From the NCBI GenBank assembly GCA_014138725.1, contig JACJID010000010.1, forward strand, positions 1-64,000: 64,000 bases of DNA, read 5' to 3'. The translations under genes and the position numbers were made by a program. Under the pieces are notes generated by a model. That model was given only the letters and a program-made list of their open reading frames with translations. It did no database searches and was not told the origin of the DNA. This DNA comes from Kutzneria viridogrisea (GTDB lineage Bacteria > Actinomycetota > Actinomycetes > Mycobacteriales > Pseudonocardiaceae). Position 1 is the stretch's first letter, and every line of letters begins with the position of its first letter. Shown here piece by piece: positions 15,461-44,225 of this stretch.

Positions 15461-15585
15461 ATGCCAGCGGTTCTCCAGTCCGTTCAGATGTGTCTCATCG
15501 GTATCGGACAGTCGGGGCGGTTCATTGGTGGAGGTATTGGTGCGTTTGGGTTCTCCGTACTCATCACTCGATCTACGGAGGCCCA

Positions 15586-17046
15586 GTGGAGTTGTTCTTC
15601 ACGGATCGGTCACGTGTCCGGGCGGGGACGGCCGTTGCTGGTCTGGAGCCGGACGAGGTGGCTGGATTGTTCGAGCGCCGTTTGGTGCCGGACGGCATGC
15701 CGATTCTGCTGGACGACGCGATGCGGCCGGTCGAGCCGTTGTCATCGTGGTTTCGGCAGCTTGCCTTGGCCGGCCGGAGCCCGAAGACAATGCGCAAGTA
15801 CGCCTACGTTGGGTTGCGATTGCAGGAGTTCCTAGCTCAGCGCGGGCTCAGCTTCGCCACGGCCACGGAGACGGACCTGCTCGAATACCGCCTGCTGCGT
15901 ACCCGGGTTCAGGACCAGCCGGTCGCCAGGTCCACGTGGGAAGTCGAGGCCACCGCGATCAACGGGCTCTATGGCTGGCTCGTCGACCAGCAACTGGTGC
16001 CGGCGCGTCCGTGGCGGCGGCATGGCGCCCGCGACTCCTGGCGCAACGGCGTGAGCCGGGATCTGCGAGTTCGGCACATGACCTTGGAGCAATACCTGTA
16101 CTTCCGCGATGTCGGCCTGGCCGGCTAGCGTCCCGACTCCACGATCGACCCGTCATTTCGAGGCAGCAGCCCTCACCGCAGCCGGGCCGGCGCCGAGTTG
16201 GCGCTGCTGACCGGGATGCGGCTGGGCGAATGGTCCTCGGTCTTGCTACCGGAGCTGGGGATCGACCCTGCCCAGCTTTGCCGCCCGCGCGAGGGAGTGA
16301 CATTCCGCCTGGGGGCGTGCGCGAAGAACCAGCGCCCGCGTGAAGTCCACGTGCCTCGGGCCGCGCTCGACTCGACGGCCACCTACCTCAGCATGGAACG
16401 CGGCCACGTGGTCGACGCCGCGCAGGCGGGACTGGCCAAACGCCGAGCCGACTTGTTCATCGTCAAGCCTGTTCAGCATGAGCGAGGCGCGCTGCGCGGT
16501 GTCCTCGACGGTGCCACGGTCTCTCGCCGGATCACCGATATGCCGCCCCGGTTGCGCCGGATCACCGTCATGGACACAGGCGACAGACTGGAACCGATGG
16601 GGGTGTTCATCGGCACAGGCGGCTGGATGCCACATCCGTCGACCTGGGACAAGATTCGTTGGCGCGCGTGGGAAAGGATGCGCAAACACGCCGATCATCC
16701 GGCCGCCGCGCCGTTGCCGACGCTGCCGTGGCTTTTCCACGACCTACGCCACACCTTCGCGCTGCGGCTGCTGCTGTTCCTGATGCGCAAAGCCGTCGCC
16801 GACGCCGCCGATCTGCCGATGACCACGCTGACCGACCACATCGCCCGCAACCCGCTTCTGGAGGTGCAACGCAGGCTCGGCCACGCGAACCCGGCCAGCA
16901 CCTACATCTACCTGCGTTACCTGACCGACCCGATGGCCGAGGTCGACGAAGCGTTCCGCGAGTGGACCGACCGCGATGCCAGCTACGCCGAGATCGGGCA
17001 GACCCTCTTCACCGCCGTGGGAGTCGCCGATGCCCCGCAAAGGTGA
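15586..17046 (+). pseudogene. Element A tyrosine recombinase 1, interrupted by an in-frame amber codon
   Basis: A site-specific integrase of about 486 codons from a GTG at 15586 (GGAGG just upstream). The N-terminal SAM-like domain (RSPKTMRKYAYVGLRLQEFLA) is intact. At 16126-16128 a TAG follows GLAG and the same frame continues RPDSTIDPSFRGSSPHRSR, into the catalytic domain. Catalytic residues are all present: TGMRLGEW (Arg), HDLRHTF (HxxR), LGHANPAST (His) and IYLRY (Tyr). Only one base separates it from a complete gene. The 3' end overlaps the next recombinase by 17 bp. A truncated N-terminal product and a separate catalytic fragment (start near 16198) are alternatives to simple loss. Confidence 0.8.
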
Positions 17047-17197: not shown

Positions 17198-18391
17198 GTG
17201 GTTCGTCACGCAACCTTGGTCGGGTAATGCGTCCAGGTCCGGATCGGCGAGTCGGTGGCGAACCCGGTCTTGGGCCGGGCACGAGCGTTGCGCCAACGGA
17301 CATACGCCTCGATCGCGGCGTTCTGCTCGGCGTGGCTGCGGTGGTCGGTCCCGTTGAGCGCGAAGTAGCGCAGCGCGGCGAACTCGGCCTCGATCCAGTT
17401 CAACCACGACCCGTAGGTCGGCAGGAACACCAACTCCACCTGATTGTCGGCGCACCACGTGCGAACCTTCGGGTGGCGATGCGGGGAGAAGTTGTCCGCG
17501 ATGACGTACAACTTCTCCCCAGGCCAGCGGGCGCGGAGGACCTTGAGCAGGTTGAGGAACTCGAGGTGACGTTTACGGTCTCGGATCCGGTAGAAGATCT
17601 TGCCGGTGGCCAGATCCAAGGCGGCGAGCATGTGCTTCACACCGTTGTAGCGGTTGTAGGTGGCCCGCTGTCGCATCGGTCTGGTCGCAGACCGCCAGGC
17701 TTTTCCCTTGCGGGGCTGCAGGTTCAGCGGCCCGAACTCATCCACGCAGACCACGCGGCCGTCGTCGGGTGGCTGGTCGTAGAGGCCCAGGATGCGGTGC
17801 ATCTTGACGATGAACTCCGGATCCGTCGATGCCTTCCACGTGGTGGTCGTCTGCCAGCTGACGCCGCCGGCGCGCAGGATCCGACGCAGGGTCTCCGTGG
17901 AAATGGCCACCACAGTGCCGCGGTCGAGCAGATGCTGGCGCAGCTTGGAAAGTGACCAGGTCGCGAACGCGGTGATGCCCCAGTCAGCGGGGGACGTCCG
18001 GGCGATCAGACAGATCCGCTCGCGGATCTGCTCACCGATCGTCTTCGGTCGTCCCCCGTTCCATTTTGGGTCCAGCGCGTCGAACCCCCGCTCGTTGAAC
18101 GCGTGGATCACATCGCGTACATAGTCGGGGCTGACCTGCAGCAACGAGGTGATGTCTCGCACGGCCTGGCCCTGGCCGGACATCAGGACCACGATCGCCC
18201 GCCGCATCTTGACCGGGTCCTTCGCGGTCCTGGTCACCCGTTGCAGTTTGCGGCCTTCCTCCATCGACAGCGTCCGGACGAACACTTCGGGTCGACGAGC
18301 CACAACCACCTCCCACAGTCAGCCTGCGGGACCAGCCTCGCCTACCCCTGGCGAAGATCAATTATCGGGTCAACGATCCGAGACGAGCCAC
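17198..18391. mobile_element. IS630-family insertion sequence inside recombinase 2
   Basis: The ends read TAGTGGTTCGTC at left and, complemented, TAGTGGCTCGTC at right, with the TA target dinucleotide duplicated at 17196-17197 and 18392-18393, as expected for IS630/mariner insertion at TA. One transposase gene fills the element. Removal together with one TA restores the host recombinase frame exactly. Confidence 0.88.
17206..18309 (-). CDS. IS630-family transposase
   Basis: A DDE/DDD transposase of 367 residues. The N-terminal helix-turn-helix is in VRDITSLLQVSPDYVRDVIHAF. The catalytic core has VVCVDEFGPLNLQPR (first Asp), LYVIADNFSPHRHPKV (second Asp) and LVFLPTYGSWLNWIEAEFAAL (final acidic residue), the IS630 pattern. 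It appears full length and undisturbed, so this copy may still move. It is oriented opposite to the recombinase it interrupts. Confidence 0.93.
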   Translation of the reverse strand: MVVARRPEVFVRTLSMEEGRKLQRVTRTAKDPVKMRRAIVVLMSGQGQAVRDITSLLQVSPDYVRDVIHAFNERGFDALDPKWNGGRPKTIGEQIRERICLIARTSPADWGITAFATWSLSKLRQHLLDRGTVVAISTETLRRILRAGGVSWQTTTTWKASTDPEFIVKMHRILGLYDQPPDDGRVVCVDEFGPLNLQPRKGKAWRSATRPMRQRATYNRYNGVKHMLAALDLATGKIFYRIRDRKRHLEFLNLLKVLRARWPGEKLYVIADNFSPHRHPKVRTWCADNQVELVFLPTYGSWLNWIEAEFAALRYFALNGTDHRSHAEQNAAIEAYVRWRNARARPKTGFATDSPIRTWTHYPTKVA

Positions 18392-18393
18392 TA

Positions 18394-20133
18394 GCCGACG
18401 AATGGGTGGAGCTGTCGGCCGCAGCCGAGCTGGCGATGGGCACGGTCCATTGCTATCGCCACGCGGTCGTCGAGTTCTGCACTTTCGTCGACCAGACCAC
18501 CCCGGCTGCGGCCACCGCGACGCTGGAGCACGCCGAGCCCGATCTGCTGCACGTCATCCTGGAGTGGGTGCGCGGCCTGCCCTCCCGCTACCCCGCCGGA
18601 TCGCAGCAACCGGCCGGACTGGCGTCCCGGGTGCGCAACCTAATCATTCATCGGTCCCAGCACCCGGATCGACCCGTGACAGCGCTGCTGAACGGGTGGC
18701 TCACCGGGGCGATCGGCCTGCGCAAGGGCGTCACCCAAGAGGTCGACGAGTTCACCCGAGCCGACAAACGAGCCCTCATCCGCGCGGCCTGGGACGACCT
18801 CCGAGCGCTGGAGCAGCGCCTCGACCGCGGCGGCGAACTGCTCGCGGCCGGAGCCGACCCCCGCGCCGACATCGACGGCTGGACATCGCCGTCCAACCTG
18901 TTGTGGGCGATCGACCACGGCGTCGAGACCCGCGAGATCCTGGACCATCTTCCACCGCCGGACCACTGGCCGCCCGCGCTGGTCGGACTGCTGCCACCGA
19001 CCGCGGCCAGCGCGACGATGCGCCGCCGCGCGCTGCTTCGAGCGCTGGCCGGGATGCTCTATCCACACAACCTGGACCTACACGCCCTCCGAGTTTTGCT
19101 GGTCGCCGCCACCGGCCACACCTCGGAGGAGGTGACCGGGCTGGCCGAGGCGGACGTCGAGTTCACCGCACACGGCGTCCAGCTGACCTTCACCAAACTC
19201 CGCGCCCACGCCGTCCGCCGCCGCGCCTACGGCACTGCCCCGGCCCCGCAGACGACCTCGGTCCCTCATCTGAGCAGGCCGCGCCTGGACGCCGCCGACA
19301 TCGTGCGCCGGTTGATGGCGGTCACCGAGCGCCTGCGCCGCCGCAGCGGCCTGCCCTCGCCGCCGTTGTTCCTGCGGGCCGTCGTGCACGTCTACGACCT
19401 GACCATCCGACCGTTCAACGGCGACATGAAGGGCGCCAGCCTCAAGTCATGGCTTGATCGCGTGGGGCTGACGCTGGACGGCCCGGCCGACATACGACGG
19501 CTGCGCAAGTCCGGCAAAGTCGAGAAGGCCCTGGCCTATCGAGGCCGCGTCAACGACATCACGGACGACCATTCGGTTGAGGTGTTCCGCGGCCACTACG
19601 CCCACGGCACCACCCTGCACGTCATCGCCGGCCATGTCATCACCACGGCCCAACAACGCTGGTTCGCCGAAGCGACCACCGGCCCCATGGTGCTGACCAG
19701 CGACGGCGAAGCCGAACTCGACCACCCGCAGGCCTCGTCGATGGTCGGGCTGTCCACCGAGCAGATCGGACGGTTGCGCGACGGCGCGATGGACATGGGC
19801 GTCAGCAGTTGCCGCGACCCACTCGACTCGCCGTTCGGCAGACCAGGACAACCATGCCCGGTTGCGCCCCTGCGCTGCCTGGAATGCCGCCACGCGGTCG
19901 TGCTGCCGTCGAACCTGCCGCAACTGCTGCTCCTAGCCGACCACCTCGACGCGCTGCGACGCCGACTCACACCCCAGCACTTCCACACCCTCTGGGGCCA
20001 GAGCCACGCCAACCTCACCGCCGTCCTGCAGGACCGCACCGACGCCGAGATCGCGTTGGCCCGCACACAGATCGCCAACGGCGAGGAAACCCTGCACATT
20101 CCGTTGTCCGCCCGAGCGGAGTTCGACCGATGA
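18394..20133 (+). pseudogene. Element A recombinase 2, 3' fragment
   Basis: About 580 codons continue recombinase 2 after the IS630 element (ADEWVELSAAAELAMGTVH to SARAEFDR). The C-terminal part resembles the tyrosine recombinase fold, but the usual box I is degenerate (ATGHTSEEVTGL, where Arg would be expected) and the late region FRGHYAHGTTLHVIAGHVITT is divergent. A cysteine pair cluster CPVAPLRCLECRHAV lies near the end. By analogy with TnpB of Tn554 it probably acts as a partner to the other recombinases. The stop overlaps the next ATG (ATGA at 20130-20133). Upstream frame extends into the IS, so no natural start remains. Confidence 0.75.
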
Positions 20134-21233
20134 ACACACGCCTTCCACTGCAGATGCCGCGCTCGGTGTTCGCCGACGACGAACCGGTGGTGCAGACGCA
20201 TCCGATGCTGCCCGACGCGAGCCCACCCCGTTTCAGGGCCACCGGCATCTGGGACCTCAACAGCGTCGTCGAGCGGCCCGTCAACCAGCCAACGACGAAC
20301 TACCGCATCTCCTTCGCCGGGTTGAACCCCGCCTGGAACCTGCGAGCGCGGGAACTGGCGATGACCTGGCTCAACCCACGCCACCCCGCAGTGCTCGCCG
20401 CCGGCCTCCACCTCAAGCCTGATCCCCGCGAGCCGCGGACAGTCACCTCGCGCGTCGGCATCCTGCGCGCCCTGGCCAAATGGGCAGCCGAACAGGACCT
20501 GCCCGACGACCTGTCCGCTTGGGAACGTGACGACTTCCACCGCTATATCCGCTCGCGCGCTGAGACTCGGGCGATCGGGAGCGTCAACGAGCACATCGTC
20601 GTCGTCAAGACCCTGCACCAGTTCAGCCCGGTGCTCACCGACGGCGGTATCACCACCGACCCCTGGCCCGGCCAACCGGCAAGCCGGGTGCTCGGGCTGC
20701 GCGACACCGGCGAGCTGTCGACGCCTGTCATCCCGCCGGAGACCTGGTTCCCGCTGATCCGGGCAGCCTGGACCTACATCGGCACCTTCGGGCCGGACAT
20801 CCTGCGGGCACGCGTGATCTGGCAGGGACTGCGGAACTCCGCCCGGCGTCTTGGCGTCGACGCGGACGCCGCGCTGGCCACCTGGCTAAGCGACCCCGAC
20901 CACCGGATCCCGATCCACAGCGACCTCGCCGGGCCGCTGAACGGGCAGGTCAACTGGTCGCTGCTCGCAGCATTCATCGGCGCGGAGAAGGGGGACTTTA
21001 CCGACCAATCCGCAGCCGGACGCCGGCGTCGCGACCTTGTTCACGCGCACGTCGCCCACGGGCAGACCCAAACCGGCGTCATCTGCGACCTGCGCCAAGT
21101 GCCACGGCCCGACGGCACAATCGGCCCCTGGCACCCCGACCTGCAACCCCGGCAGATGTGGTTGGAATGCACCGCATTGCGCAACGCCTGCTACATCTTC
21201 GTCGCCGCGCTGTCGATGATGCGCGACAGCGAG
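20130..21233 (+). pseudogene. Element A recombinase 3, 5' fragment (split by element B)
   Basis: It starts with ATG overlapping the previous stop and runs 368 codons (MNTRLPLQMPRSVFADDEPV to ALSMMRDSE). The last residues are box I of the tyrosine recombinase catalytic site (MMRDSE, holding the first catalytic Arg). Immediately after GAG at 21231-21233 the sequence changes to element B. The continuing protein, IRAITRNSIVEHYGAPAV, is found in the matching orientation at 25244. Family members read through this point without interruption. Confidence 0.8.
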
Positions 21234-21407
21234 AAACGGGCGAAGTTGCATCTGATGAAGCATTCGGCACGCTCGAATACTGGCGAAGCCGCAGCTCAGG
21301 GCGCTGTGTGGAGACAGCTTGCCGCTTGATCGACGGATCTGCCAGGGCCTCTTGCGCTCGAGCCTCCTCGACTCAACAATGTTGCATCTGATGTAACGGA
21401 GGTTGGA

Positions 21408-22529
21408 GTGGGTCGAGCGGCTGATCTGCCGGGTGCTGCGCATCTGGTGCTGGCGGGCAACGTCGTGCACCTTGACCCGGCGCCGGTGGTGTTCAAGGGG
21501 ATGCTGGAGGGCTGGAGCCGGCAGCAGCGGACGCGGTTTCTGAAGTGGGAAGGGACGATCAAGCCTCGGTTGTCACTGGTCCGCCGGTTCGCCGAGTTCA
21601 CCAACCAGTACCCGTGGGAGTGGGAGCCCGCCGAGGTCGAGGCGTTCTTCGACCATCTTCGGTCGAAGAATCCGAACCTCACGGTCTCGACGGGGCGGCA
21701 GTACCAAAACGGTCTGCGGATGTTCATGGACTTCATCACCGACGCTCGTTACGGATGGCTCGCCACCTGCCTTGAGCAGTTCGGCAGGGTTCCGGCGCAA
21801 ATCCTGCACGAGTGGAACTCAGTCAGCCACGTGGCCGAATTCGAGGGACAGCCCGGTCGTCGTCCGCTGACCTACGAGGAGGTCCAATCGCTGTTTGACG
21901 CGGCGGACGCCCGGGTGGACGACAAACGTGCCCGTGGCCGCAAGGGCGCGTTGACCGCGATGCGGGATTCCGCGCTGCTTAAGGCTTTCTACGCCTTCGG
22001 CCTACGTCGCCAGGAGATGGTCGGCCTGGACCTGGCGGATCTGCGACACAACCCCAAGACCCCGGACTTCGGTCAGTACGGCGCGCTGTTCGTCAGGTTC
22101 GGCAAGTCGTCCAACGGCAGCCCGCCCAAGCGCCGCACCGTGTTCACCGTCCCGGAGATGGACTGGATCGTCGACGTTCTCGACCACTACGTCACAGAGG
22201 TCCGTCCACGGTTCGACGTCGGTCAGCACCCGGCGTTCTGGGTGACCGAACGGCGCGGCCGGTTGTCCAAGCGCGGCGCCAACGAGGCGTTCGAGACCGC
22301 CCGCCAGGCCGCCGGGCTGCCCGAGGAGCTCGACCTGCACAGCCTCCGCCACTCCATGATCACGCACCTCGTGGAGTTCGATTACCCCGAGAGATTCGTT
22401 CAAGATCAGGCAGGCCACAAGGTAGCCGCCACGACAGCGATCTACACGGGTGTGTCGGATGAGTACCGCAACCGGCTGCTGAAGAGCAAGCTCACCGCCC
22501 GCCATGCCGAACTCTGGGAGAAGCCGTGA
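21408..22529 (+). CDS. Element B tyrosine recombinase/integrase
   Basis: A 373-residue tyrosine recombinase with an N-terminal core-binding domain (LSLVRRFAEFTNQYPWEWEP to GRQYQNGLRMFMDF) and a complete catalytic domain: FGLRRQEMVGL (Arg I), a lysine-bearing beta hairpin (RFGKSSNGSPPKRR), LHSLRHSMITH (HxxR), QAGHKVAATT (His) and AIYTGVSDEY (nucleophilic Tyr). The start is GTG at 21408 with GGAGG 5 bp upstream. The stop overlaps the next GTG (GTGA). All catalytic residues are kept, so it is the likely active enzyme for moving element B. Confidence 0.9.
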   Translation: MGRAADLPGAAHLVLAGNVVHLDPAPVVFKGMLEGWSRQQRTRFLKWEGTIKPRLSLVRRFAEFTNQYPWEWEPAEVEAFFDHLRSKNPNLTVSTGRQYQNGLRMFMDFITDARYGWLATCLEQFGRVPAQILHEWNSVSHVAEFEGQPGRRPLTYEEVQSLFDAADARVDDKRARGRKGALTAMRDSALLKAFYAFGLRRQEMVGLDLADLRHNPKTPDFGQYGALFVRFGKSSNGSPPKRRTVFTVPEMDWIVDVLDHYVTEVRPRFDVGQHPAFWVTERRGRLSKRGANEAFETARQAAGLPEELDLHSLRHSMITHLVEFDYPERFVQDQAGHKVAATTAIYTGVSDEYRNRLLKSKLTARHAELWEKP

Positions 22530-22849
22530 TCAAGAAGATGGGGATCCGCTGGAACCTGCGCAAGCTCATGGCTGCCCGCGACATGTTCCAGACCACCGAT
22601 CTGGGGCCTCCGCTTGCCGAGCGAGGCATCCACTTGTCCCGTGAGCAGGTGTTCCGGCTGGTCACTCAACCGCCGCAACGCTTGTCGATGGACACCCTCG
22701 CCGCGCTCTGCGACATCCTTGCCTGCACCCCGAACGACCTCATCGAGGTCGAGACCGTCAACGCCGAGGTCCGCAAGACCGCCGGCGAGACGACAGCCCC
22801 GGCGCCGGCGGTGCGCCGCACCTCGATCCGGAAACCCAAAGGGCTATGA
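22526..22849 (+). CDS. XRE-like helix-turn-helix protein of element B
   Basis: A 107-residue protein whose first 75 residues form a Cro/C1-type helix-turn-helix (RWNLRKLMAARDMFQTTDLG, LSREQVFRLVTQ, LSMDTLAALCDILACTPNDLI), followed by a basic proline-rich tail (RRTSIRKPKGL). It sits between the two recombinases with 4-bp overlaps on both sides, so all three are made together. A role as repressor or as directionality factor for recombination is inferred from this setting. A second start at 22538 (MGIRWN) is possible. Confidence 0.85.
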   Translation: MIKKMGIRWNLRKLMAARDMFQTTDLGPPLAERGIHLSREQVFRLVTQPPQRLSMDTLAALCDILACTPNDLIEVETVNAEVRKTAGETTAPAPAVRRTSIRKPKGL

Positions 22850-25227
22850 CCGCACCCTCCACCGCAGCTCGGCTCGCCCGCCAAGCGGAACGGCTGGACA
22901 CCGCGATAACGGCTGCGACCGCCCAGGTGACCAGCGCCCTTCCAGAGGTGAGCGCCGACGAAGCCAGGGCGGCGCTAGAGGTCGTGGTGCCACTCACGAT
23001 GAAGGGCCAGGGTCCAGCCCGGTTCCTGGAGGAACTGGCCGCGCATATGGCCGAGAAACCCGAGGCCCTCACCTCGGGTGACCCCCGCTGCTCCCTGGTG
23101 CTCATCCGCCTGACCCATGTCCTGCACGACGCCGGGCGGCCCGTCGTCCGGCCTGGCTGCGCACGCTGCGGAAAGATCCACCTCGACCTTCGACACGGTC
23201 GACCCGAGGGCCGGATCTGCGGGACCTGCTATGCGCGTGAGCGCAAGGCCACGTGCGGACGCTGCGGCGCCACTGAGACAAAGATCGTGGCCAGGAGGCC
23301 TGAGGGCGGTATCTGCAATCGGTGCTACCGCGCCGACCCCGAGGTCGTCGAAGAATGCGCCGAGTGCGGCTCACACCGTTGCCCGGCTGTCCGTCTCCCC
23401 GACGGCCGCGCGCTTTGCCAGTCCTGTTGGAAGAGCCGACGGCCCATGCACACATGTGTGTCCTGCGGGAAGACTGCTGCCGCAGCACTCATCGACGAGC
23501 AGGGCGCCTACTGCCACTTGTGCTACACCCGGCATCGGCGTCCGCGACGGACCTGCGGCCGTTGCGGCCGCCCCGGCAAGATCGCCCGCAACGCTCACGG
23601 CGATCAGCCCGACCTCTGCGACAGCTGCTACCGAGGACCGGTACGGACCTGCTCACGTTGCGGACGGGTACGGCCTTGTCAACGGATCACCTCCGGCGAG
23701 CCGATCTGCCACACCTGCTACGCCCGCGATGAGCGTCCCCGCGTGACCTGCACTCGCTGCGAGCGCGACAAGCCCGTCATGACCTACTGGCCGATCGGGC
23801 CGGTCTGTCAGAGCTGCTACACCGCCATCGTCCGGTCCCCAGCCGAGTGCGCCCGCTGCCATGAGCCCCACCCGCTCATCGCCCGGGACGCCAGCGGAGC
23901 CGGGCTCTGCGGTCCCTGCGCAGGGCATGACGTCGACTACACCTGCCGGCAGTGCGGACGGTCAGGGAATCCTTACGGGCACGGGCGTTGCGCCCACTGC
24001 GTCCTCGCCGACAAGGTCAACGACCTGCTCGCCGGTCCGGACGGGACCATCCCAGCTCAACTCCAGCCGCTCGCGGACGGCCTCACCAGTACTCATGCGC
24101 CGTTCAAGGCTATCCAGTGGGTTCACGAGCATCCGAACGCCCAACTGCTGGCCGCGTTCGTCACCGAAGGCCGCCCGATCAGTCACGACCTCCTGGACGA
24201 GTTGCCGCCCGGTGCTGCTCTTCAGCATCTCCGGCAGATGATGGTGCAGACCGGGGTGCTCCCCGAACGACACGAGGATCTCGAACGTGTTCCGGCCTGG
24301 TTGGAGCACCACCTGGTCAATAAACCGGTCGAACACGCCAACCTCGTCCGTCCGTTCCTGCACTGGCACCTGCTGCGCCGAGCCCGAAGCCGGGCGGGCA
24401 AACGCACTTTCCCCACCACCGTCGGCCGTGACCTGCGCCGTCGGATCCTGGTCGCCCTCGACCTCCTGGCCTGGATCAGCGCCCAGAAAACCACCTTGGA
24501 AGAGCTCCGCCAGGACGACCTCGACCGATGGCTTGACGAGGAGAACACCCAGCGCCGCAACCGGGTCCGCTACTTCCTCGGCTGGACAGCTGACCGCGGC
24601 CTCAGCCGCCGGCTCACCGTTCCCTCCATCCCGCGGCAGGAACCTGCCGACCTACTCGACGACGACGAACGCTGGCGACTCGTGCAACGCTGCCTGACCG
24701 ACGAGACCCTTCCCATCGAGGTCCGGGCAGCCGGAGCGCTCATCATCCTGTTCGCCCTCCAAGCCCAGCGGATCCGGCACCTCACCGCAGACCAGCTCAC
24801 CGAGAAGGGAGACGACACCTACCTGACGGCGGGCCGTCACCCGATCCTGCTGCCGCCGCGCCTCGGCGCTTTGCTCCGTGGCCTGGTCTCCCGGCCGCCA
24901 ACCCCGCTCATGATCCCCCACGGCCCGAACACACCCAGGTGGCTGTTCCCCGGCCGCGTTCCCGGCCAACCCATCGACGGGCACAGCCTCACCAACCTGC
25001 TCAACCGACATGGCATCAGCGCGCGGCCAGCCCGCAACGGCGCGCTCGCCGCGCTCGCCGCCGACCTCCCGGCCGCTATCCTCGCCGACCTCCTCGGCCT
25101 CCACGTCAACACCGCAGTCCGCTGGGTCACCTACGCCCGCCGAGACTGGGCCGACTACCTCGTCCTCCGGGCCGCCGACCAGAAGGAGAACGCCAAGAAG
25201 CAGGGGAATAGTGCACGGCCGGAATAA
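22846..25227 (+). CDS. Element B large recombinase-like protein with nine zinc ribbons
   Basis: A 793-residue protein. Residues about 1-95 are helical. Residues about 97-385 carry nine successive CxxC...CxxC zinc ribbons (for example CARCGK with CGTC, CGRCG with CNRC, CSRCG with CHTC, the last CRQCG with CAHC). Residues about 390-790 form a tyrosine-recombinase-like region: a core-binding helical part (LVALDLLAWISAQ), FALQAQRIRHLTADQL (Arg I present), then a divergent late part ARNGALAALAADLPAAIL, DLLGLHVNTAVRWVTYARR in which HxxR is not recognisable. It is probably a non- or weakly catalytic partner that binds DNA through the ribbons. It is coupled by ATGA to the XRE gene. I know no characterised protein with this layout. 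Confidence 0.82.
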   Translation: MTAPSTAARLARQAERLDTAITAATAQVTSALPEVSADEARAALEVVVPLTMKGQGPARFLEELAAHMAEKPEALTSGDPRCSLVLIRLTHVLHDAGRPVVRPGCARCGKIHLDLRHGRPEGRICGTCYARERKATCGRCGATETKIVARRPEGGICNRCYRADPEVVEECAECGSHRCPAVRLPDGRALCQSCWKSRRPMHTCVSCGKTAAAALIDEQGAYCHLCYTRHRRPRRTCGRCGRPGKIARNAHGDQPDLCDSCYRGPVRTCSRCGRVRPCQRITSGEPICHTCYARDERPRVTCTRCERDKPVMTYWPIGPVCQSCYTAIVRSPAECARCHEPHPLIARDASGAGLCGPCAGHDVDYTCRQCGRSGNPYGHGRCAHCVLADKVNDLLAGPDGTIPAQLQPLADGLTSTHAPFKAIQWVHEHPNAQLLAAFVTEGRPISHDLLDELPPGAALQHLRQMMVQTGVLPERHEDLERVPAWLEHHLVNKPVEHANLVRPFLHWHLLRRARSRAGKRTFPTTVGRDLRRRILVALDLLAWISAQKTTLEELRQDDLDRWLDEENTQRRNRVRYFLGWTADRGLSRRLTVPSIPRQEPADLLDDDERWRLVQRCLTDETLPIEVRAAGALIILFALQAQRIRHLTADQLTEKGDDTYLTAGRHPILLPPRLGALLRGLVSRPPTPLMIPHGPNTPRWLFPGRVPGQPIDGHSLTNLLNRHGISARPARNGALAALAADLPAAILADLLGLHVNTAVRWVTYARRDWADYLVLRAADQKENAKKQGNSARPE

Positions 25228-25243
25228 CACCCCTCCACCAGTA

Positions 25244-26197
25244 ATCCGGGCCATCACCCGCAACAGCATCGTCGAGCACTACGGCGCGCCCGCAGTCGTG
25301 TCCACCAAGCGCAAACGGGACCCTGACCGGCCTACCGAACGCTGGTGGATCATCGAGCCGGTCGCTCAGGCCATCTTCACCGCAACGCAACTGTCCGAAC
25401 ATCCCGACCTAGCGTTCGCCGGCGTCCGCGGCACCGGCAACACCGCCGACGCGTTCGCCAGCGCCGGGGCGATCGAAGCGTTCATCGCGCGGGTCAACAC
25501 CCACCGCCACCACACCGGACTGGAGCCGATCCCCACTGACCGAGTGACCCCGCACATGTTTCGCAGGACCATGGCGATGCTCACCCGCGACTATCCCGGC
25601 TCCGAGATCGCCCTGGGCATGCAGTTGAAGCACGCCGCGACCCGAGCCCTGGCCAAGAGGTCGACCCAGGGCTACGCGGCCAGCGCTCCAGCCTGGGCCG
25701 CATACTTCGACGTCGCCCTCGCTGACGCGCGATTCGAGAAGCTGCGCGACCTCTACGACGCCCATCGGCGCGGCGACACCATCGGATACGGTCCTGGCTC
25801 AGACCAACTCCGCGGGGCCTTCGACGCGGTCACCGCCACCGCCCAGGCTCAACACGGCGACGCCCGCGTCGAATACGACCTGCTACGGAAAGCCCGGATC
25901 GCCGTCCGGTTCGGCGCCGTGAACCACTGCACCCTCGACGAGTCCAACCCAGTCGACGCGAAGTGCCTGGAGAACACCGTCGTGCCACCAGGGCACCGCG
26001 GTCCCCTCGTCGACCGATGCCAGCCCGCGCGCTGCCCCAACAGCGTCATCGCCCCCGAGCACCTCGTCGTCTGGCGCACCGAGGAACGCAGCCTGCTCAC
26101 CATCCTTGAGACCCCAAAACTCGCCCCCATCAGGCGCGCGCAGCTGCAGCGGGAACTCGACGACGTCCGCGTCGTGATCAGGAGGACGACACCGTGA
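25244..26197 (+). pseudogene. Element A recombinase 3, 3' fragment
   Basis: About 317 codons completing recombinase 3 after element B. It begins IRAITRNSIVEHYGAPAV and carries the remaining catalytic set: TPHMFRRTMAML (HxxR), GMQLKHAATRAL (His) and TQGYAAS (Tyr). A cysteine pattern follows (HCTLDESNPVDAKCLEN, RCQPARCPNSV). Frame is kept with the 5' fragment across the junction. The open frame extends upstream into element B's last gene, so a chimeric start is possible but unlikely to yield active protein. The stop overlaps the next GTG by 4 bp. Confidence 0.78.
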
Positions 26198-26634
26198 CCA
26201 CGACCCACGACGAAGTCTCGCCGCAGGCGGCCAGCGCTCTGCGCGAGGCCATGAACCGGCTCCTCATCGGCCAATCCCGTCACACCAACGGCCAGCTGAC
26301 CAAAGCCAACCTCGGCCGAGAGGCACGCCTGAGCCACGCCACGGTCCACCGGGCCAAGACCATCCTCAAAGAGTGGGACGAGGCTGTCGCGGCCTGCGGC
26401 GGAACCACCGCCCAACAACTGCGCCACGACGGCGAGACCGCAGACCTGCGGGCCCGCCTGGCGACAAAGACCCAGGAATGCCGGGAACTTCACCGGCAGC
26501 TCGAAGCCGCGGCAACGGTAATCGCCACCTTGCACCACGAGAACACCGCGCTCCGAGCCCTGCTCAACCGACAGGGAACCGTCGTCCCGCTTGGGATTCG
26601 CCATGCGACGGCCGAGCTGGAGCCGGTCCCATGA
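26194..26634 (+). CDS. TnpC-like accessory protein of element A
   Basis: A 146-residue protein with an N-terminal DNA-binding-like segment (LTKANLGREARLSHATVHRAKTIL) and a C-terminal coiled coil (LRARLATKTQECRELHRQLE, ATVIATLHHENTALRALLN). Length, position after the recombinases and coiled coil match TnpC of Tn554-type elements, which aids transposition efficiency and orientation. The GTG start overlaps the preceding stop. It appears intact although every recombinase of its own element is broken. Confidence 0.72.
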   Translation: MTTTHDEVSPQAASALREAMNRLLIGQSRHTNGQLTKANLGREARLSHATVHRAKTILKEWDEAVAACGGTTAQQLRHDGETADLRARLATKTQECRELHRQLEAAATVIATLHHENTALRALLNRQGTVVPLGIRHATAELEPVP

Positions 26635-28481: not shown

Positions 28482-28629
28482 GCAGGTCAGATGCGGCCAG
28501 AGGACCCGAACCAGATCACGATCAACGCACTTCGCTCATGGTCGACTATCCGGCGACCGGCTCGACACCGGGGGCCAGATCCAGCTCGAGTGAGAGTCTT
28601 GCGGCCCACGCTGTGGGCAGGAAGGCTCG

Positions 28630-28917
28630 ATGACGATGAGTACCAGGAAGCGGCACACCCCCGAGCAGGTCGTGCGGAAGCTGGCCCAGGCCGACCGGCT
28701 GCTGGGCGAGGGCAAGGACATCGCGGATGTCTGCCGGGAGTTGCAGGTCAGCGAGCCGACCTACTACCGGTGGCGTAACCAGTTCGGCGGTCTGAAGGCC
28801 GATGACGCCAAGCGGTTGAAGGACCTGGAACGAGAGAACGCCACCCTCAAGCGGCTGTTGGCCGACGCGGAACTGGAGAAGGCGGCGCTCAAGGAGATCG
28901 CCAAGGGAAACTTCTAA
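28630..28917 (+). CDS. IS3-family transposase OrfA
   Basis: A 95-residue protein with a helix-turn-helix ([40 protein letters not shown]) and a leucine-zipper-like coiled coil ([19 protein letters not shown]) used for multimerisation. It binds the IS ends. The frame ends with a stop just past a GGGAAAC slippery heptamer, so ribosomes slipping back one base make the OrfAB fusion. There is an identical copy at 43902-44189. Confidence 0.92.
28905..28911 (+). promoter_or_regulatory. Programmed -1 frameshift heptamer GGGAAAC
   Basis: In the orfA frame it reads G GGA AAC, the X XXY YYZ form. Slipping back one base leads through [11 protein letters not shown] into orfB without a stop. It lies 4-13 bases before the orfA stop codon. 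The equivalent site in copy 2 is at 43908-43914 on the minus strand. Confidence 0.7.
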
Positions 28918-28940
28918 GCCCGGACCGCCGGCGGGCGGCC

Positions 28941-29750
28941 GTGCACCACCTGATGCGGGCGCTCGGGGTGAGTGAACGGTTCGCCTGCCGGGTGACCGGG
29001 CAGAACAGGGGCACCCACCGGCGGGCGCCGGTGACCCAGACCCCGGCAGATCCGGACGCGGCGTTGCGGGCCTGGCTGCGGGACTACGCGAAGGCGCATC
29101 CGCGATGGGGGTTCCGGCGGGCCTACCACGACGCCCGTGGCGAGGGCTGGACGGTCAACCACAAGAAGGTCCAGCGGTTGTGGCGCGAGGAGGGCTTACG
29201 GGTGCCCCAGCGGCGTCGCCGCAAGCGTCTGGGCACCTCGACCGCGAAAGACACTCCGAAGGCGGACGCGCCGAATCGCGTGTGGGCGGTCGACTTCCAG
29301 TTCGATGCCACCACCGATGGCAAACCCGTCAAGATTGTGTCCATTGTGGATGAGCACACCCGGGAATGTCTGGGCGGTCTGGTCGAACGCTCGATCACCG
29401 CGGAACGCCTGATCGATGAGCTGGACCGCATCGCTGGCGATCGGGGCTACCCGGCGGTGCTGCGCAGTGACAACGGTCCCGAGCTGGCCTGCGCGGCGAT
29501 GAGCGACTGGGCCGGTGAGCGTGTCGGGTTGGCGTTCATCCCGCCGGGCCAGCCGTGGCGCAACGGCTATGTCGAGTCGTTCAACGGCCGGCTCCGTGAC
29601 GAATGCTTGAACATCAACCTGTTCTGGTCGCTGATCCAGGCCCGGGTCGTGATCAGCGACTGGAAGGACGAGTACAACCACCATCGCAGGCACTCCGCGC
29701 TGGGCTATCAGACCCCGGCCGGCTACGCTGCGGCCTGCATCCACCGATAA
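28941..29750 (+). CDS. IS3-family transposase OrfB (DDE integrase domain)
   Basis: A 269-residue catalytic part with an HTH_21-like region ([20 protein letters not shown]) and a retroviral-type integrase core: [15 protein letters not shown] (Asp), [15 protein letters not shown] (Asp) and [19 protein letters not shown] (Glu). It is expressed as an OrfAB fusion by frameshifting. The listed start codon is only the first start-like codon (GTG) in the frame. It is complete, so the element could be mobile. There is an identical copy at 43069-43878. Confidence 0.93.
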
Positions 29751-29792
29751 CCGACTCTCACAGACGGTGGGCCACTTCACGGGGTCCCGTCA

Positions 29793-30632
29793 ACCGCCAT
29801 GACGGCGTCGCATCAGATGGCCGAACTTGCGTTCCACTGTGGGGCGGGTGGCCCGGTAGTCGGCTTTCCAGGCGGGATCGGCCTGTCGGGCGCGGCCGGC
29901 GGCCAACTCGGCTTCGTAGTGGCCGATGGTGATGGTGCGGCCGGCCTTGGCGGTGGTGCATCCGGTGGCTAGCGGGCAGGTGGCGCAGGCGGTGCCGAAC
30001 TCGGCGATCCCCAGCGTGGCGCTCGTGGCCGAGGGCGCGGATGGTGGCGGTGATCCCAGCCGGGCAGGTCACAGTCTGCGCGTCAAGATCGATAGCGAAG
30101 CGGTCTTTGGGGAAGTGCCCCTTGATCCGTGCCGACGGTTACACCTTGAGTCCGTTGTGGATGGACGCATTATCCAGCCGTGCCAGCAATTCGCCCGCGC
30201 CGTAGGCGGCATCACCGTAAACCGCGATCTGTTGGTCGGCTTCGGCTTCGGCTTCGGCTTCGGCTTCGGCTTCGGCTTCGGCTTCGGCTTCGGCTTCGGC
30301 TTCGGCTTCGGCTTCGGACGGCAGGATGTCGCTCAACAGCCCTTCGGCAACCTCGGCATCCCCGCTGTTGCCCGCGGTGACCCCGGTAGCAGTGATGATC
30401 TCCGAATCAGGATCGACGGCGAGATGCCCCTTGTAGCCGTCGAACCCCCGCGCGGAGGTCTTGTGCCCGTGCCGGGCGTCGGTGTCCACCGTGGAAATCA
30501 CCCGGTCGGCGGCGACCTTGCGGACGATCCGCACGACCCCGTCCCCGCCCTCGACGAGGTCCTGACCGACCACGCACGCCAGCAACGCGACAGCTTGACC
30601 GACCCGCTCAGCCAGCCTGCGACCCTGGCTCT
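29793..30632 (-). pseudogene. IS1182-family transposase remnant
   Basis: Minus-strand blocks of an IS1182 transposase: VVGQDLVEGGDGVVRIVRKV, STVDTDARHGHKTSARGFDG, YKGHLAVDPDSEIITATGVT, then AVYGDAAYGAGELLARL, and beyond an in-frame TAA (30139) IKGHFPKDRFAIDL. After a frameshift near 30030 the zinc-cluster region continues. Both ends are missing: the start is cut at an IS5 scrap and the end at IS3 copy 1. An expanded GCCGAA repeat lies within it. Not functional. Confidence 0.75.
30235..30317. repeat. Hexanucleotide tandem repeat (TTCGGC), about 13.5 units
   Basis: Twelve uninterrupted TTCGGC units plus partial units at each end. On the minus strand it encodes a run of Glu-Ala pairs inside the dead IS1182 transposase, where related proteins have only a short acidic linker. 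The perfect repetition suggests recent slippage expansion. Confidence 0.92.
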
Positions 30633-30633
30633 C

Positions 30634-30732
30634 ATGACACGGTTCCAATTGCTGTCCGACGAGCAGTGGGCGTTGATCGAGGACCTGTTACCGGTGTGGA
30701 CGCTGATCGCCTGCCTCAAGCTGTTCAGGTGA
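30634..30732 (+). pseudogene. IS5-family transposase, N-terminal scrap
   Basis: The frame begins MTRFQLLSDEQWALIEDLLP, the standard amino end of IS5-type transposases, and then loses similarity within a few codons before a stop. It abuts the truncated start of the IS1182 remnant. A C-terminal scrap of the same family lies at 10.6 kb. Confidence 0.6.
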
Positions 30733-30796: not shown

Positions 30797-32182
30797 TCAG
30801 GCCGTCGCCTGCTTCTTCTGCTTCTCCTGGTCACGGTCCTTGTCCATGTTCTCCGCGATCTTCATCTTCATCTGCCGCGGCAGGTTGTTGACCAGGCGCA
30901 TCCCGGTCCGGCCGATCATTGCCACGATTGGCCCGATGACCGGCTTGTACACGGCGTCGTCACCGGTGCCCGCCGACCGCGACTTGATGACGGCGTCGAA
31001 GCCGTACTCGACCATCTGTGTCTCGTAGTCGTGGATCGCGTCCAGCAACGTCATGCCGCCTTCCCTGGCCTTGACCAGGTTCTCGCACAGCAGCCGTGCG
31101 TCGCGCAGCGCCGTGTTGGCGCCGATGCCGCGGCCCGGAGTCATGGTGTGGATGGCGTCGCCGAGGAGCGTGATGGTGGTGGTCTTCCACTGGGGGATCG
31201 GCTCGGAGGTGCGGATGTTGATCGGGAAGATCGTGGAGGTGTCGCCCAGCAAGAACAGCTTGCGCAGGTTGGGGTGCCAGCGTGTGGTGCGCTCGATGAC
31301 CAACTCACGCAGCTGTGGCCCCTTCAAGCCCATCAGGTCCGCCGGCATCTTGTGTTGTGCGCTGCCGAAGGACCACATGATGTAGTCGCGGGTGTTGTCG
31401 TAGAGCAGGCCCGGCCAGCTCTCGATCAGTTCGGAGTTGGTGCCGCCGATGGTGTCCTTCGGCTTGCCGTCCTGGCCCCACGGGAACTCCATGACGTGGA
31501 TGATGGTGCTGTACCCACCGGGTCCGCTGACGATGGAAATACCGTTGAACACCTTGTCCGGCAGAAGTTTCCTGGTCTCTTCGGTCAACGGTGTCTTGCC
31601 GACCAGACCGATCAGTTTGGCGTCCACGAGCTTGGCGTCGGGGAGGTACTGCCCGCGGACGCGGGAGTTGGAACCGTCCGCGGCGACCAGCACGTCGCCG
31701 GTGGCCGAGGTGCCGTCGTCGAAGAAGGCGGTGACCGTGCCGTCAGGCCGCTGTTCGTAGTGGGTGAAGGTCTTGTCGAACTGCACGACGTCCTCGAGTC
31801 CGGTCAGCAGCACCTGCCGCAGCGTCATGCGGCTGACCGACCTGTCCTGCGCGATCGGGTCGGGCTCCGGCGGCTGCTGCCCCTCGGTCAGTTCGGGGCC
31901 GAACACCAACAGTTCCCTAAGTTGTTCGCTCCACATGCCGAAGTAGAAGGGTTTCCTGGCGCAGGTCGCGACGAAGACGTCCCAGAGTTCCGGTGGCAGG
32001 CACGCGTGCAGTGCGCGGCTGCCGTCAGGCGAGATGCCGACGCGGTAGCCCTGCAGGCCGTCGCGCCGAGTACGGTCACGTTCGGAGACCGTGACCTTGA
32101 CCCCGGCCTGTTTGAGTCCTTGCGCGAGGCACAGTCCGCCAGTGCCCGCCCCGATGATGATCACGTGTGGCGAAGTGGACAT
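30797..32182 (-). CDS. FAD-dependent monooxygenase (group A flavoprotein), paralogue 2
   Basis: A 461-residue aromatic-ring-hydroxylase-type flavoenzyme. The dinucleotide-binding motif is IIIGAGTGGLCLAQGLKQAG at the N-terminus, the middle motif is DVLVAADGSNSRVRGQY, and the second FAD motif is TITLLGDAIHTMTPGRGIGAN. The C-terminal tail is unusually charged (KMKIAENMDKDRDQEKQKK). It is a tandem paralogue of the gene at 32417-33790, separated by a terminator hairpin and about 235 bp, so each may have its own promoter. I used the ATG at 32182 because it aligns with the paralogue's start. The substrate is unknown. Such enzymes hydroxylate polyketides or inactivate aromatic drugs. Confidence 0.9.
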   Translation of the reverse strand: MSTSPHVIIIGAGTGGLCLAQGLKQAGVKVTVSERDRTRRDGLQGYRVGISPDGSRALHACLPPELWDVFVATCARKPFYFGMWSEQLRELLVFGPELTEGQQPPEPDPIAQDRSVSRMTLRQVLLTGLEDVVQFDKTFTHYEQRPDGTVTAFFDDGTSATGDVLVAADGSNSRVRGQYLPDAKLVDAKLIGLVGKTPLTEETRKLLPDKVFNGISIVSGPGGYSTIIHVMEFPWGQDGKPKDTIGGTNSELIESWPGLLYDNTRDYIMWSFGSAQHKMPADLMGLKGPQLRELVIERTTRWHPNLRKLFLLGDTSTIFPINIRTSEPIPQWKTTTITLLGDAIHTMTPGRGIGANTALRDARLLCENLVKAREGGMTLLDAIHDYETQMVEYGFDAVIKSRSAGTGDDAVYKPVIGPIVAMIGRTGMRLVNNLPRQMKMKIAENMDKDRDQEKQKKQATA

Positions 32183-32375
32183 GGTGATGACCCCCATGTG
32201 ATGTCGTTGAGTGTGTCTCCCGTGCGGGGGAATGCCCTGACCTGCCTCTGGTCAGCGCGAACGGATCACCGCTGACCCGGCGGAAATGAGATGCGGTCTA
32301 AGCCGTGCGCGCCTTCCTGACCCTCCTCGTGCGCGTGCTCGCCGCGCTCGGTTCGGCCATGTCCGGGTGCCCGCT

Positions 32376-32416: not shown

Positions 32417-33790
32417 TCAGTCCTCGGTCGTGCGACCGGCGCCGCGGAACTCCGCCTCCGCCATTGCCATCTTCCGCTTGACGAAGGTCATCTGGTTCAT
32501 CGCCCGCATGCTGGTCCGCATCATGCCGCGAACCAGCATGCCCTGCAGGCCGCTTTTGTGGTTGGCCGAGTGGCCGTCCATGCTCTGCCGGGACTTGATC
32601 ACGGCCTCGAAGCCGTACTTGACCATCTTTGTCTCGTAGTCGCGCACGGCGTCGAGCAGGCTGGTCCTGCCCTCCTGTGCGGCCACCAGGTTCTTGCACA
32701 GCAGCGCCGCGTCACGCAGTGCCGTGTTGGCTCCGACGCCGCGGCCGGGCGTCATCGTGTGGATGGCGTCACCGATCAGCGTGACGTTGGTGGTCTTCCA
32801 CTGTGGGATCGGCTCGGAAGTGCGGATCTTGAGCGGGAAGCAGCTGTTTGAGTCGCCGAGCGCGAACAGTTGGCGCAGGTTCGGGTGCCAGTCGGCGGTG
32901 AGTTCCTGTACCAGTCGCTGCGCCTGTGCGCCCTTGCGCTGCATGGTGTCCTCCGGCAGCCAGTGGTCGGCTGCGGCGAAGCCCCACATGATGTAGTCGC
33001 GGGAGTTGGCGTAGAGCAGGCCGGGCCACTGCCTGATCAGTTCGGTCTCGGTGCGGCCGATGCCGTCCTTGAGCTCGCCGTGGGTGTCCCACGGAAACCG
33101 CATCACGTGCAGGATGCACATGAAGCCCTTCTTGCCCTGAACCATCGACACGCCGTCAATGACCTGCCTGGGCAGCAACTTGCGGGTCTGGTCGGTCAGC
33201 AGCGTCTTGCCCGTGATGCCGATCAGACCAGTGTCCACCAGCTTGGCCTGCGGCAGGTACTGCGTGCGGACCTTCGAGTTGGTGCCGTCGGCCGCGACGA
33301 GCACGTCACCGGTCACCGAGGTGCTGTCCTCGAAGAAGGCGGTGACCTTACCGTCGGGGCGCTGCTCGTAGTGCGTGAACCGCTTCTCGAAGTGCACGAC
33401 GTCGTCGAGGCCGGTCAACAGCACCTGCCGCAGCGTCATCCGGCTGACCGACTCGTCCAGGTCGAGCTCGTCGAAGTTCGGCGGCTCCTTGAAGATCTCC
33501 GGCCCGGAGGAGAACAGTTCCGACAGTTGCTCGGTGTACTGGTTGAAGTAGACCGGCCGCTTCGCGCAGGTGGCGATGAAGGTGTCGTAGAGCTGTTCGG
33601 ACAGGCAGGCGCGCAGCGCGCGCTTGCCGTCCGGGTCGATGCCGACGCGGTAGCCCTGCAGGCCGTCGCTGCGGGTCTGGTCGCGTTCGTAGACCGCGAC
33701 GCTGACGCCCGCGCGCTTGAGCCCCTGCGCAAGGCATAGACCGCCGGTTCCGCCCCCGATGACGAGGACCTGCAACGGTGCGGTGGACAT
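32417..33790 (-). CDS. FAD-dependent monooxygenase (group A flavoprotein), paralogue 1
   Basis: A 457-residue flavoenzyme with VLVIGGGTGGLCLAQGLKRAG (FAD ADP-binding), DVLVAADGTNSKVRTQY and NVTLIGDAIHTMTPGRGVGAN. It is highly similar to the gene downstream along its full length (for example SRMTLRQVLLTGL and THYEQRPDG in both), which indicates a tandem duplication followed by divergence. It lies about 37 bp downstream of a PadR regulator on the same strand and is probably controlled by it. Substrate unknown. The two copies may act on successive positions or related compounds. Confidence 0.9.
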   Translation of the reverse strand: MSTAPLQVLVIGGGTGGLCLAQGLKRAGVSVAVYERDQTRSDGLQGYRVGIDPDGKRALRACLSEQLYDTFIATCAKRPVYFNQYTEQLSELFSSGPEIFKEPPNFDELDLDESVSRMTLRQVLLTGLDDVVHFEKRFTHYEQRPDGKVTAFFEDSTSVTGDVLVAADGTNSKVRTQYLPQAKLVDTGLIGITGKTLLTDQTRKLLPRQVIDGVSMVQGKKGFMCILHVMRFPWDTHGELKDGIGRTETELIRQWPGLLYANSRDYIMWGFAAADHWLPEDTMQRKGAQAQRLVQELTADWHPNLRQLFALGDSNSCFPLKIRTSEPIPQWKTTNVTLIGDAIHTMTPGRGVGANTALRDAALLCKNLVAAQEGRTSLLDAVRDYETKMVKYGFEAVIKSRQSMDGHSANHKSGLQGMLVRGMMRTSMRAMNQMTFVKRKMAMAEAEFRGAGRTTED

Positions 33791-33827
33791 GGTGTTACCC
33801 CCAAATGAGCAGGAAGGTGTGTCGGTT

Positions 33828-42862: not shown

Positions 42863-43068
42863 TGTGTGTGGCCTCAGGACATGCCTACCCGTGTGTTATC
42901 ACGACATGCCTGACCGGGGATCGGTGATTACCGGCGCCTGGCCGGTGACTTCACGTGCCGGAGGGGTCGGTTGGTCGTACGGGATGGACCGCGAGTTCTG
43001 TCTCGCCGTCCATGATCCGGACGTGGTGACGGGACCCCGTGAAGTGGCCCACCGTCTGTGAGAGTCGG

Positions 43069-43878: not shown

Positions 43879-43901
43879 GGCCGCCCGCCGGCGGTCCGGG
43901 C

Positions 43902-44189
43902 TTAGAAGTTTCCCTTGGCGATCTCCTTGAGCGCCGCCTTCTCCAGTTCCGCGTCGGCCAACAGCCGCTTGAGGGTGGCGTTCTCTCGTTCCAGGTCCTT
44001 CAACCGCTTGGCGTCATCGGCCTTCAGACCGCCGAACTGGTTACGCCACCGGTAGTAGGTCGGCTCGCTGACCTGCAACTCCCGGCAGACATCCGCGATG
44101 TCCTTGCCCTCGCCCAGCAGCCGGTCGGCCTGGGCCAGCTTCCGCACGACCTGCTCGGGGGTGTGCCGCTTCCTGGTACTCATCGTCAT
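43902..44189 (-). CDS. IS3-family transposase OrfA, copy 2
   Basis: The 95-residue helix-turn-helix and coiled-coil protein is identical to that at 28630-28917. It recognises IS ends and, by -1 frameshifting near its stop, supplies the N-terminal part of the OrfAB transposase. Confidence 0.92.
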
Positions 44190-44225
44190 CGAGCCTTCCT
44201 GCCCACAGCGTGGGCCGCAAGACTC

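What the first reader, a model, noticed from the sequence alone, without database searches (positions are those of the whole stretch)
21408..25227. Candidate undescribed transposition system: tyrosine recombinase, XRE protein and nine-zinc-ribbon recombinase-like partner
Three genes with 4-bp start-stop overlaps. The first has a complete R-K-HxxR-H-Y set. The 793-residue partner carries nine tandem CxxC...CxxC ribbons fused to a recombinase-like domain with Arg I but no recognisable HxxR. I know of no characterised element using a zinc-ribbon array in this way. The ribbons may read a long DNA target such as the recombinase box I site.
Basis: partly seen in the sequence, partly recalled or inferred. 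Interest (0 to 1): 0.85.

Follow-up and report, generated by a model that had tools for sequence, protein, structure and literature searches.

The report
Transposon that invades recombinase active-site codons
This is a small jumping DNA element of soil bacteria, built from a DNA-cutting enzyme, a regulator and an unusual partner protein with a row of zinc-binding modules; it lands with near single-base precision in the most conserved part of other elements' recombinase genes, and our searches found no earlier description of it.

Summary
The three genes are the core of a 4,010-bp mobile element, window 21234-25243. A second copy, 100% identical, sits elsewhere in the same genome with unrelated flanks. 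Both copies, and two relatives (gene 3 about 90% and 58% identical), interrupt a recombinase gene at the same codon junction, beside the catalytic Arg-I box. In six of six sites tested the frame rejoins with no base gained or lost. A sister clade inserts beside the catalytic tyrosine codon of recombinase genes in 14 of 19 resolved insertions. Other clades use other coding sites; target follows element phylogeny. YR, XRE protein and zinc-ribbon partner travel together: 29 of 30 loci found with the YR alone. The partner has 1-14 ribbons and a tyrosine-recombinase-like domain without Tyr at the nucleophile position. A palindrome at the left end and in the promoter marks a likely XRE site. Gene set and footprint match none of the five YR transposon groups tabulated in PMC10214605. 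That the ribbons read the target is not shown. Novelty: new variant of a known kind.

The parts
21234..25243 (+). whole mobile element, 4010 bp (AAACGGG...CACCAGTA); ends placed with the help of L037, uncertain by 1-2 bp from W and L006 alone
   Evidence: 100% identical 4015-bp block shared with L006, minus target bases; empty-site rejoining
21246..21260 (+). left-end palindromic box TTGCATCTGATGAAG (likely P2 site)
   Evidence: box with <=3 mismatches at the left end in 32 of 50 elements, 0.25 expected
21382..21396 (+). second palindromic box TTGCATCTGATGTAA before gene 1
   Evidence: box with <=4 mismatches before gene 1 in 35 of 50 elements, 1.7 expected
21408..22529 (+). gene 1, tyrosine recombinase (P1), complete catalytic set
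22526..22849 (+). gene 2, XRE/Cro-type HTH protein (P2)
   Evidence: PF13443 E 5.7e-16
22846..25227 (+). gene 3, zinc-ribbon array fused to a YR-like domain (P3), 793 aa
23158..24000 (+). nine tandem zinc ribbons (18 CxxC), residues 105-385 of P3
24001..25224 (+). YR-like domain of P3, residues 386-793, no Tyr at the nucleophile position
25205..25243 (+). right end: two GGAATA repeats and CACCAGTA terminus, overlapping the 3' end of gene 3
   Evidence: same pattern, with variations, in L037, L155, L039, L044, L046, L047, L050
20130..21233 (+). 5' part of the interrupted recombinase gene (third gene of an older recombinase cluster)
   Evidence: homologous to L091, L093, L095, L096, L097, L102
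25244..26197 (+). 3' part of the interrupted recombinase gene

Best explanation
A compact tyrosine-recombinase transposon. SHOWN by comparison: it moves as a unit with fixed ends; the sites tested show no target duplication or loss; most clades with several placed insertions keep to one kind of coding site, here the Arg-I box of a recombinase gene; its three genes stay together; some relatives carry variable cargo between gene 3 and the right end. INFERRED: gene 1 (P1) makes and rejoins the breaks with Tyr346, probably through a circular intermediate. Gene 2 (P2) binds the palindromes TTGCATCnGATGCAA at the left end and before gene 1, so that it both controls expression and marks the left end. 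Gene 3 (P3) is a catalytically dead recombinase-fold partner, as Tfp and GinC are in SEs and GInts; its ribbon array adds DNA contacts, most likely to the target. Landing in recombinase genes lets the element ride on, and in this clade break, other mobile elements.
For: Identical copy with unrelated flanks. Arg-I-box insertion in 4 of 4 resolved members of the clade: W, L006, L037, L155. Tyr-box clade: 14 of 19 resolved; in these 14 the Tyr codon is 15 nt (11) or 19 nt (3) from the TTGCATC box. Frames rejoin in 6 of 6 sites. Near-identical copies elsewhere: L059/L060, L055/L056, L055 tandem array. Partners downstream in 29 of 30 P1-seeded loci. Palindromes 32 of 50 and 35 of 50 against 0.25 and 1.7 expected. 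Thirteen target classes on 35 labelled rows of the P1 tree need 12 changes, the minimum, against 22.3 for shuffled labels. P3 has no Tyr at aligned positions 753-762 in 20 of 20. The left target arm does not resemble the element's right end in six sites (2.5 of 12 matches, 3.0 for shuffles), which leaves room for a separate target reader.
Against: No experiment. The role of P3 rests on weak homology and analogy. The right target arm does resemble the element's left end a little over the first 12 bases (4.2 matches, 2.95 for shuffles, 78 of 3000 shuffles as high; not over 20 bases; W and L006 share that end), so part of the recognition may be ordinary core-site homology read by P1. Same-target pairs have divergent arrays (L044/L050 ribbon part 43% identical; L046/L051 48%, 8 against 4 ribbons), and two Tyr-box elements (L071/L076) have gene 3 only 51-52% identical at 77% in gene 1. 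The palindromes are not found in the 14-ribbon clade (L065-L069). The one fold made is unusable (pLDDT 41). Tyr-clade numbers come from a search seeded with a Tyr-box element, 18 of its 26 listed records at 45% identity or more. Five of 19 resolved Tyr-clade insertions lie outside YR genes: three copies in a WXG-like gene, one in an IS3-type transposase gene, one in a GNAT-type gene of a more distant member. No circular form was sought.
Confidence: 0.8

Rival explanations
1. The ribbon array binds the element's own ends (for example the GGAATA repeats of the right end) as an architectural partner, and P1 itself chooses the target.
For: Right-end repeats recur in several clades. Elements with different arrays share a target. 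The right target arm resembles the element's left end slightly over 12 bases. Elements with 3 ribbons mostly have the left box 216-247 bp before gene 1, those with 4-10 ribbons mostly 140-167 bp.
Against: The left target arm does not resemble the right end; P1 is 69-81% identical between several elements with different targets while both halves of P3 drop to 44-64%.
Confidence: 0.37
2. A member of a described group (Tn554, SE, GInt or RIT).
For: Multi-protein YR systems with target specificity; Tfp of SEs and GinC of GInts are likewise recombinase-fold proteins without RHRY.
Against: Different gene set (one YR, an XRE protein, a zinc-ribbon partner; no further gene between gene 3 and the right end in this copy), no 6-bp footprint, no hit to a model named for those groups in three libraries.
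Confidence: 0.05
3. Not a transposon: a three-gene operon duplicated by chance together with a larger segment.
For: Three genes only and no cargo in this copy.
Against: The identical block stops at the same base on both sides in unrelated surroundings, and the empty site rejoins exactly.
Confidence: 0.01

Closest known systems
[quoted passage not shown] PMC10214605, abstract and passages read)
   Same: tyrosine recombinase with a recombinase-fold partner lacking catalytic residues; target specificity; overlapping operon
   Different: two active YRs and Srap in SEs; 6-bp footprint; median 15.7 kb; found only in Gammaproteobacteria; no XRE gene or zinc ribbons in what I read
GInts (GinA-D; PMC5385486, abstract and opening read)
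   Same: recombinase operon including GinC, which lacks RHRY (per PMC10214605)
   Different: three putative integrases plus a small helix-loop-helix gene; imperfect direct repeats; cargo 2.5 to at least 70 kb. A GInt- or RIT-like cluster is the TARGET here
Tn554 family (via PMC10214605 passages; otherwise recalled)
   Same: transposon with tyrosine recombinases, site preference, no target duplication
   Different: TnpA, TnpB, TnpC; 6-bp footprint; no zinc-ribbon partner
RIT elements (via PMC10214605 and PMC8138268 passages)
   Same: compact three-gene YR element
   Different: three catalytic YRs and 34-bp terminal inverted repeats

Membership tests
Tn554 | TnpA, TnpB (both with RHRY) and TnpC | tested here: not met
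   one RHRY protein, one XRE protein, one partner without the nucleophile Tyr
Tn554 | 6-bp footprint next to the element | tested here: not met
   0 bp gained or lost in 6 of 6 sites; the Tn554 property is from PMC10214605
SE | intA-tfp-intB-srap operon | tested here: not met
SE | Tfp-like partner with recombinase fold and no RHRY | tested here: inconclusive
   P3 domain is YR-like without the nucleophile Tyr; direct homology to Tfp was not tested
SE | strand-biased circle, empty site not restored | not testable with these tools
   needs cells
GInt | ginABCD operon at one end, cargo, AT-rich 3' end | tested here: not met
   no such operon inside 21234-25243
RIT | three adjacent catalytic YRs | tested here: not met
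RIT | 34-bp terminal inverted repeats | tested here: inconclusive
   right end against reverse complement of left end over six sites: 4.7 of 12 matches, 3.3 for shuffles, 46 of 3000 as high; 6.3 of 20, 5.1 for shuffles, 213 of 3000: at most weak, short inverted similarity
Tyrosine recombinase superfamily (gene 1) | R-K-HxxR-H-Y | tested here: met
   invariant in 23 of 23
Tyrosine recombinase superfamily (gene 3) | catalytic tyrosine | tested here: not met
   no Tyr at positions 753-762 in 20 of 20; Tyr763 in 2 of 20 (the window's among them) and Tyr771 in 18 of 20 lie further on and were not tested as nucleophiles

The most novel reading that the evidence does not exclude
The ribbon array is a modular DNA reader: by gain, loss and divergence of ribbons these elements have repeatedly been re-aimed at conserved coding motifs, among them the two catalytic boxes of tyrosine recombinases. 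In the Tyr-box clade the element even supplies a replacement C-terminal tail, so that the invaded recombinase may stay active. (Lowered from 0.30 to 0.28 after one search showed slight similarity of one target arm to an element end.)
Probability: 0.28. Interest if true: 0.95.

Novelty: new variant of a known kind. Interest (0 to 1): 0.82.

Why it matters
PMC10214605 names five groups of tyrosine-recombinase transposons; this would be a further one. Relatives of gene 3 occur in 100 of 297 sampled genomes of the host family and in 238 plasmid records, where the listed ones are annotated as hypothetical protein, site-specific integrase or regulator. It offers a natural system in which a DNA-joining enzyme with an exact, footprint-free product is aimed at different coding sites, with related elements aimed elsewhere for comparison. 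It also suggests that mobile elements parasitise the active-site codons of other mobile elements' recombinases, an idea that can be tested directly.

Tried and rejected
Rejected: passive segmental duplication; membership in Tn554, SE, GInt or RIT (membership test); a phage home (no match at E 1e-5 in 50,697 phage records; relatives of gene 1 lie on six viral contigs; one search found none); a defence system (no PADLOC hit).

Led nowhere: one-sequence fold of gene 3 (pLDDT 41); first profile-profile comparison (0.4%), better with broader alignments; whether ribbon similarity predicts target: same-target and different-target pairs overlap, inconclusive; a residue-by-residue analysis of ribbons was begun and not finished; Pfam scan of eight further gene-3 proteins gave only weak hits. 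A target half was first translated in the wrong frame (tW_C) and corrected. One search placed several left ends wrongly; replace it.

Rows dropped: 7 of 26 Tyr-clade elements have no resolved left end: L209, L211, L212, L213, L215, L220, L225 (missing, degraded or cut by the record end). A first, less related copy in L071 (dprA-like target) is not counted in that clade. Of the 26 listed plasmid records at 45% identity or more I fetched 18. In the window's clade L004 and L049 (the same contig, right end lost) and L005 (fragment) are unresolved. One search used 50 of 53 distinct elements (3 with too little upstream DNA). labels 35 of 68 rows. One search used 30 of the 31 matches listed (one came without a locus). 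Of 34 stretches without the gene chain, six were fetched as target sites (L136-L139, L150, L151); the others I did not examine one by one.
Full report
Observation. Gene 1 is a complete tyrosine recombinase, gene 2 an XRE/Cro-type HTH protein; gene 3 carries 18 CxxC motifs, that is nine ribbons, and a C-terminal domain of about 400 residues.

It is a mobile element with exact ends. The window's genome (10.25 Mb, 11 contigs) holds two copies of gene 3 that are 100% identical and one distant paralogue, 31%. The identical DNA spans 4,015 bp, with unrelated sequence on both sides. The outermost bases belong to the target: the element is 21234-25243, AAACGGG...CACCAGTA, 4,010 bp. Near-identical copies at different places occur in other genomes: L059/L060 (3,330 bp), and L055/L056 (3,238 bp, 100%), where L055 is a head-to-tail array of three copies with an extra 465-bp piece in one joint. 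Some relatives carry different cargo between gene 3 and the conserved right end: L046 an ArsR-type regulator and a methyltransferase, L047 a P-type ATPase.

Target of this clade. In the window the element splits the third gene of an older, decayed recombinase cluster; the copy in L006 splits a distantly related gene (linked through L082 and L150). Four intact homologues of the L006 gene, L137-L139 and L150, read straight through the site. The junction lies between the Glu codon and the next codon of the Arg-I box (GMRxGE|V). L037 (gene 3 90% identical, another genus of the family) has both ends there; L155 (Streptomyces sp. NBC_00053 plasmid, gene 3 about 58% identical over the matched part; gene 1 not found) is seen only from its right end, where the downstream half of such a gene starts. 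That is 4 of 4 resolved members; L004/L049 and L005 could not be resolved.

A second recombinase-hunting clade. Elements with gene 1 about 76-80% identical to that of L197 and their plasmid relatives insert beside the catalytic tyrosine codon of recombinase genes. I examined 26 elements: 8 from genomes or a viral contig and 18 from plasmids. Nineteen left ends were resolved; 14 lie at the Tyr box of a YR gene: L071, L076, L156, L174, L197, L210, L214, L216, L217, L218, L221, L223, L224, L226. The invaded genes include a phage-type integrase on a viral contig (L197) and gene 1 of another copy of the family (L071). The five exceptions are L061-L063 (copies in a WXG-like gene), L222 (an IS3-type transposase gene at a look-alike sequence) and L219 (a GNAT-type gene, more distant element); these gene names are my reading of translations. 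Gene 1 of L222 and L197 is nearly identical (branch 0.0026), so one element type can use both, which points to recognition of DNA sequence, not of gene family. The distance from Tyr codon to the TTGCATC box is 15 nt in 11 and 19 nt in 3 of 14, and in all 14 the invaded gene keeps its Tyr codon and gains a tail of 16-33 residues from the element's side. Whether such enzymes still work is open.

Other clades. Reading flanks by eye, other targets include the 3' end of NlpC/P60 genes, the 3' end of ATP-dependent DNA ligase genes, a PAPS-reductase-like gene, comM, dprA and the start of a replication-relaxation gene. In four Rhodococcus plasmids the element follows the stop codon of a YR gene. On a tree of 68 gene-1 proteins, 35 with a target label, 13 target classes need 12 changes, the minimum, against a mean of 22.3 for shuffled labels; the Tyr-box class by itself needs 3, because the transposase and WXG insertions nest within it. 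Near-copies contribute to this clustering.

Precision. In the six sites where I had both ends (W, L006, L037, L222, L223, L224) the reading frame rejoins with no base gained or lost. In W and L006 the base after the junction is A where homologues have G, which I take as sequence variation because L037 keeps G; from W and L006 alone the ends are uncertain by a base or two. SEs and Tn554 are reported to leave 6 bp. The four Rhodococcus sites show a short TGACC-type repeat at both ends, so exactness may differ between clades.

The three genes stay together. Seeding with gene 3, the order 1-2-3 was found in 71 of 105 stretches (75 chains). Seeding with gene 1 instead (200 genomes of the order, 23 with matches at E <= 1e-60), 29 of 30 loci had both partners directly downstream; the exception is a partial gene 1, profile positions 5-236 of 372. 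Gene 3 relatives occur in 100 of 297 genomes of the family and, with a profile, in 25 of 396 of the phylum, the window's genome counted in both.

What the parts probably do. A 15-bp palindrome TTGCATCnGATGCAA lies at the left end (<=3 mismatches in 32 of 50 elements; 0.25 expected from dinucleotide shuffles) and again before gene 1 (<=4 mismatches in 35 of 50; 1.7 expected); the 14-ribbon clade lacks it. The pattern was taken from these sequences, so this shows enrichment, not discovery from outside. Gene 2 is the natural binder (inference). Gene 3 has from 2 CxxC motifs (L171, L179) to 28 (L066, L067, L069) and a YR-like domain: PF00589 in 3 of 20 members, XerD as the only recombinase among the 60 shown of 79 PDB profile hits, at a weak E 0.089, profile-profile E 8e-5. 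Arg730, aligned with the Arg of HxxR, is kept in 20 of 20 and Arg642 in 16 of 20; positions 753-762, where the nucleophile should be, hold no Tyr in 20 of 20, though Tyr771, further on, is kept in 18 of 20. It thus resembles Tfp of SEs and GinC of GInts, which also lack RHRY. The left target arm does not resemble the element's right end, but the right target arm resembles the left end slightly over 12 bases (78 of 3000 shuffles as high) and not over 20: a separate target reader is plausible, not proven. Gene 3 diverges faster than gene 1 in most pairs listed. Against a simple code, elements with the same target can have different arrays.

Literature. Ten searches of the open PMC library found no description. 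I read the abstract and opening of PMC5385486, the abstract and passages of PMC10214605 and passages of PMC8138268; the rest only as search listings. Most subscription journals, ISfinder and TnCentral could not be searched, so 'undescribed' holds only within that library.

Noticed in passing
15490-17046, 18103-20133, 20130-26197, 26194-26634: An older, decayed recombinase cluster (first YR in two frames, a second recombinase-like ORF, a third gene split by the element, a small coiled-coil-like gene), with a transposase-like ORF at 17206-18309 on the minus strand (IS630-type by eye) between the first two; GInt- or RIT-like layout.
   Followed up: partly
28578-29792 and 43027-44241: Two 100% identical 1215-bp inverted copies of an IS3-like element (IS3-like by eye).
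   Followed up: no
30977-32196 and 32588-33803: Two neighbouring segments 75% identical to each other, the first overlapping a flavin-monooxygenase-like ORF on the minus strand (name by eye).
   Followed up: no
29926-30732: A run of repeated Gly-Phe codons (Glu-Ala on the other strand) inside overlapping ORFs that look like a transposase remnant.
   Followed up: no
51883-52442: Imperfect direct repeats, about 72-82% alike.
   Followed up: no
L055 1192-11362: Head-to-tail array of three element copies; the joints carry 5-bp spacers AACTA and AAGTA, and AAGTA also flanks the single copy in L056, as if left-flank bases travel with the element in that clade.
   Followed up: partly
L071 1967-3327: One copy sits at the start of a dprA-like gene, and a second copy sits in its gene 1 just after the Tyr codon: nested copies.
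   Followed up: partly
L037 and L155: Relatives in the window's clade with long inserts: the L037 element is 11,294 bp, and L155 has two right ends about 3.8 kb apart.
   Followed up: partly
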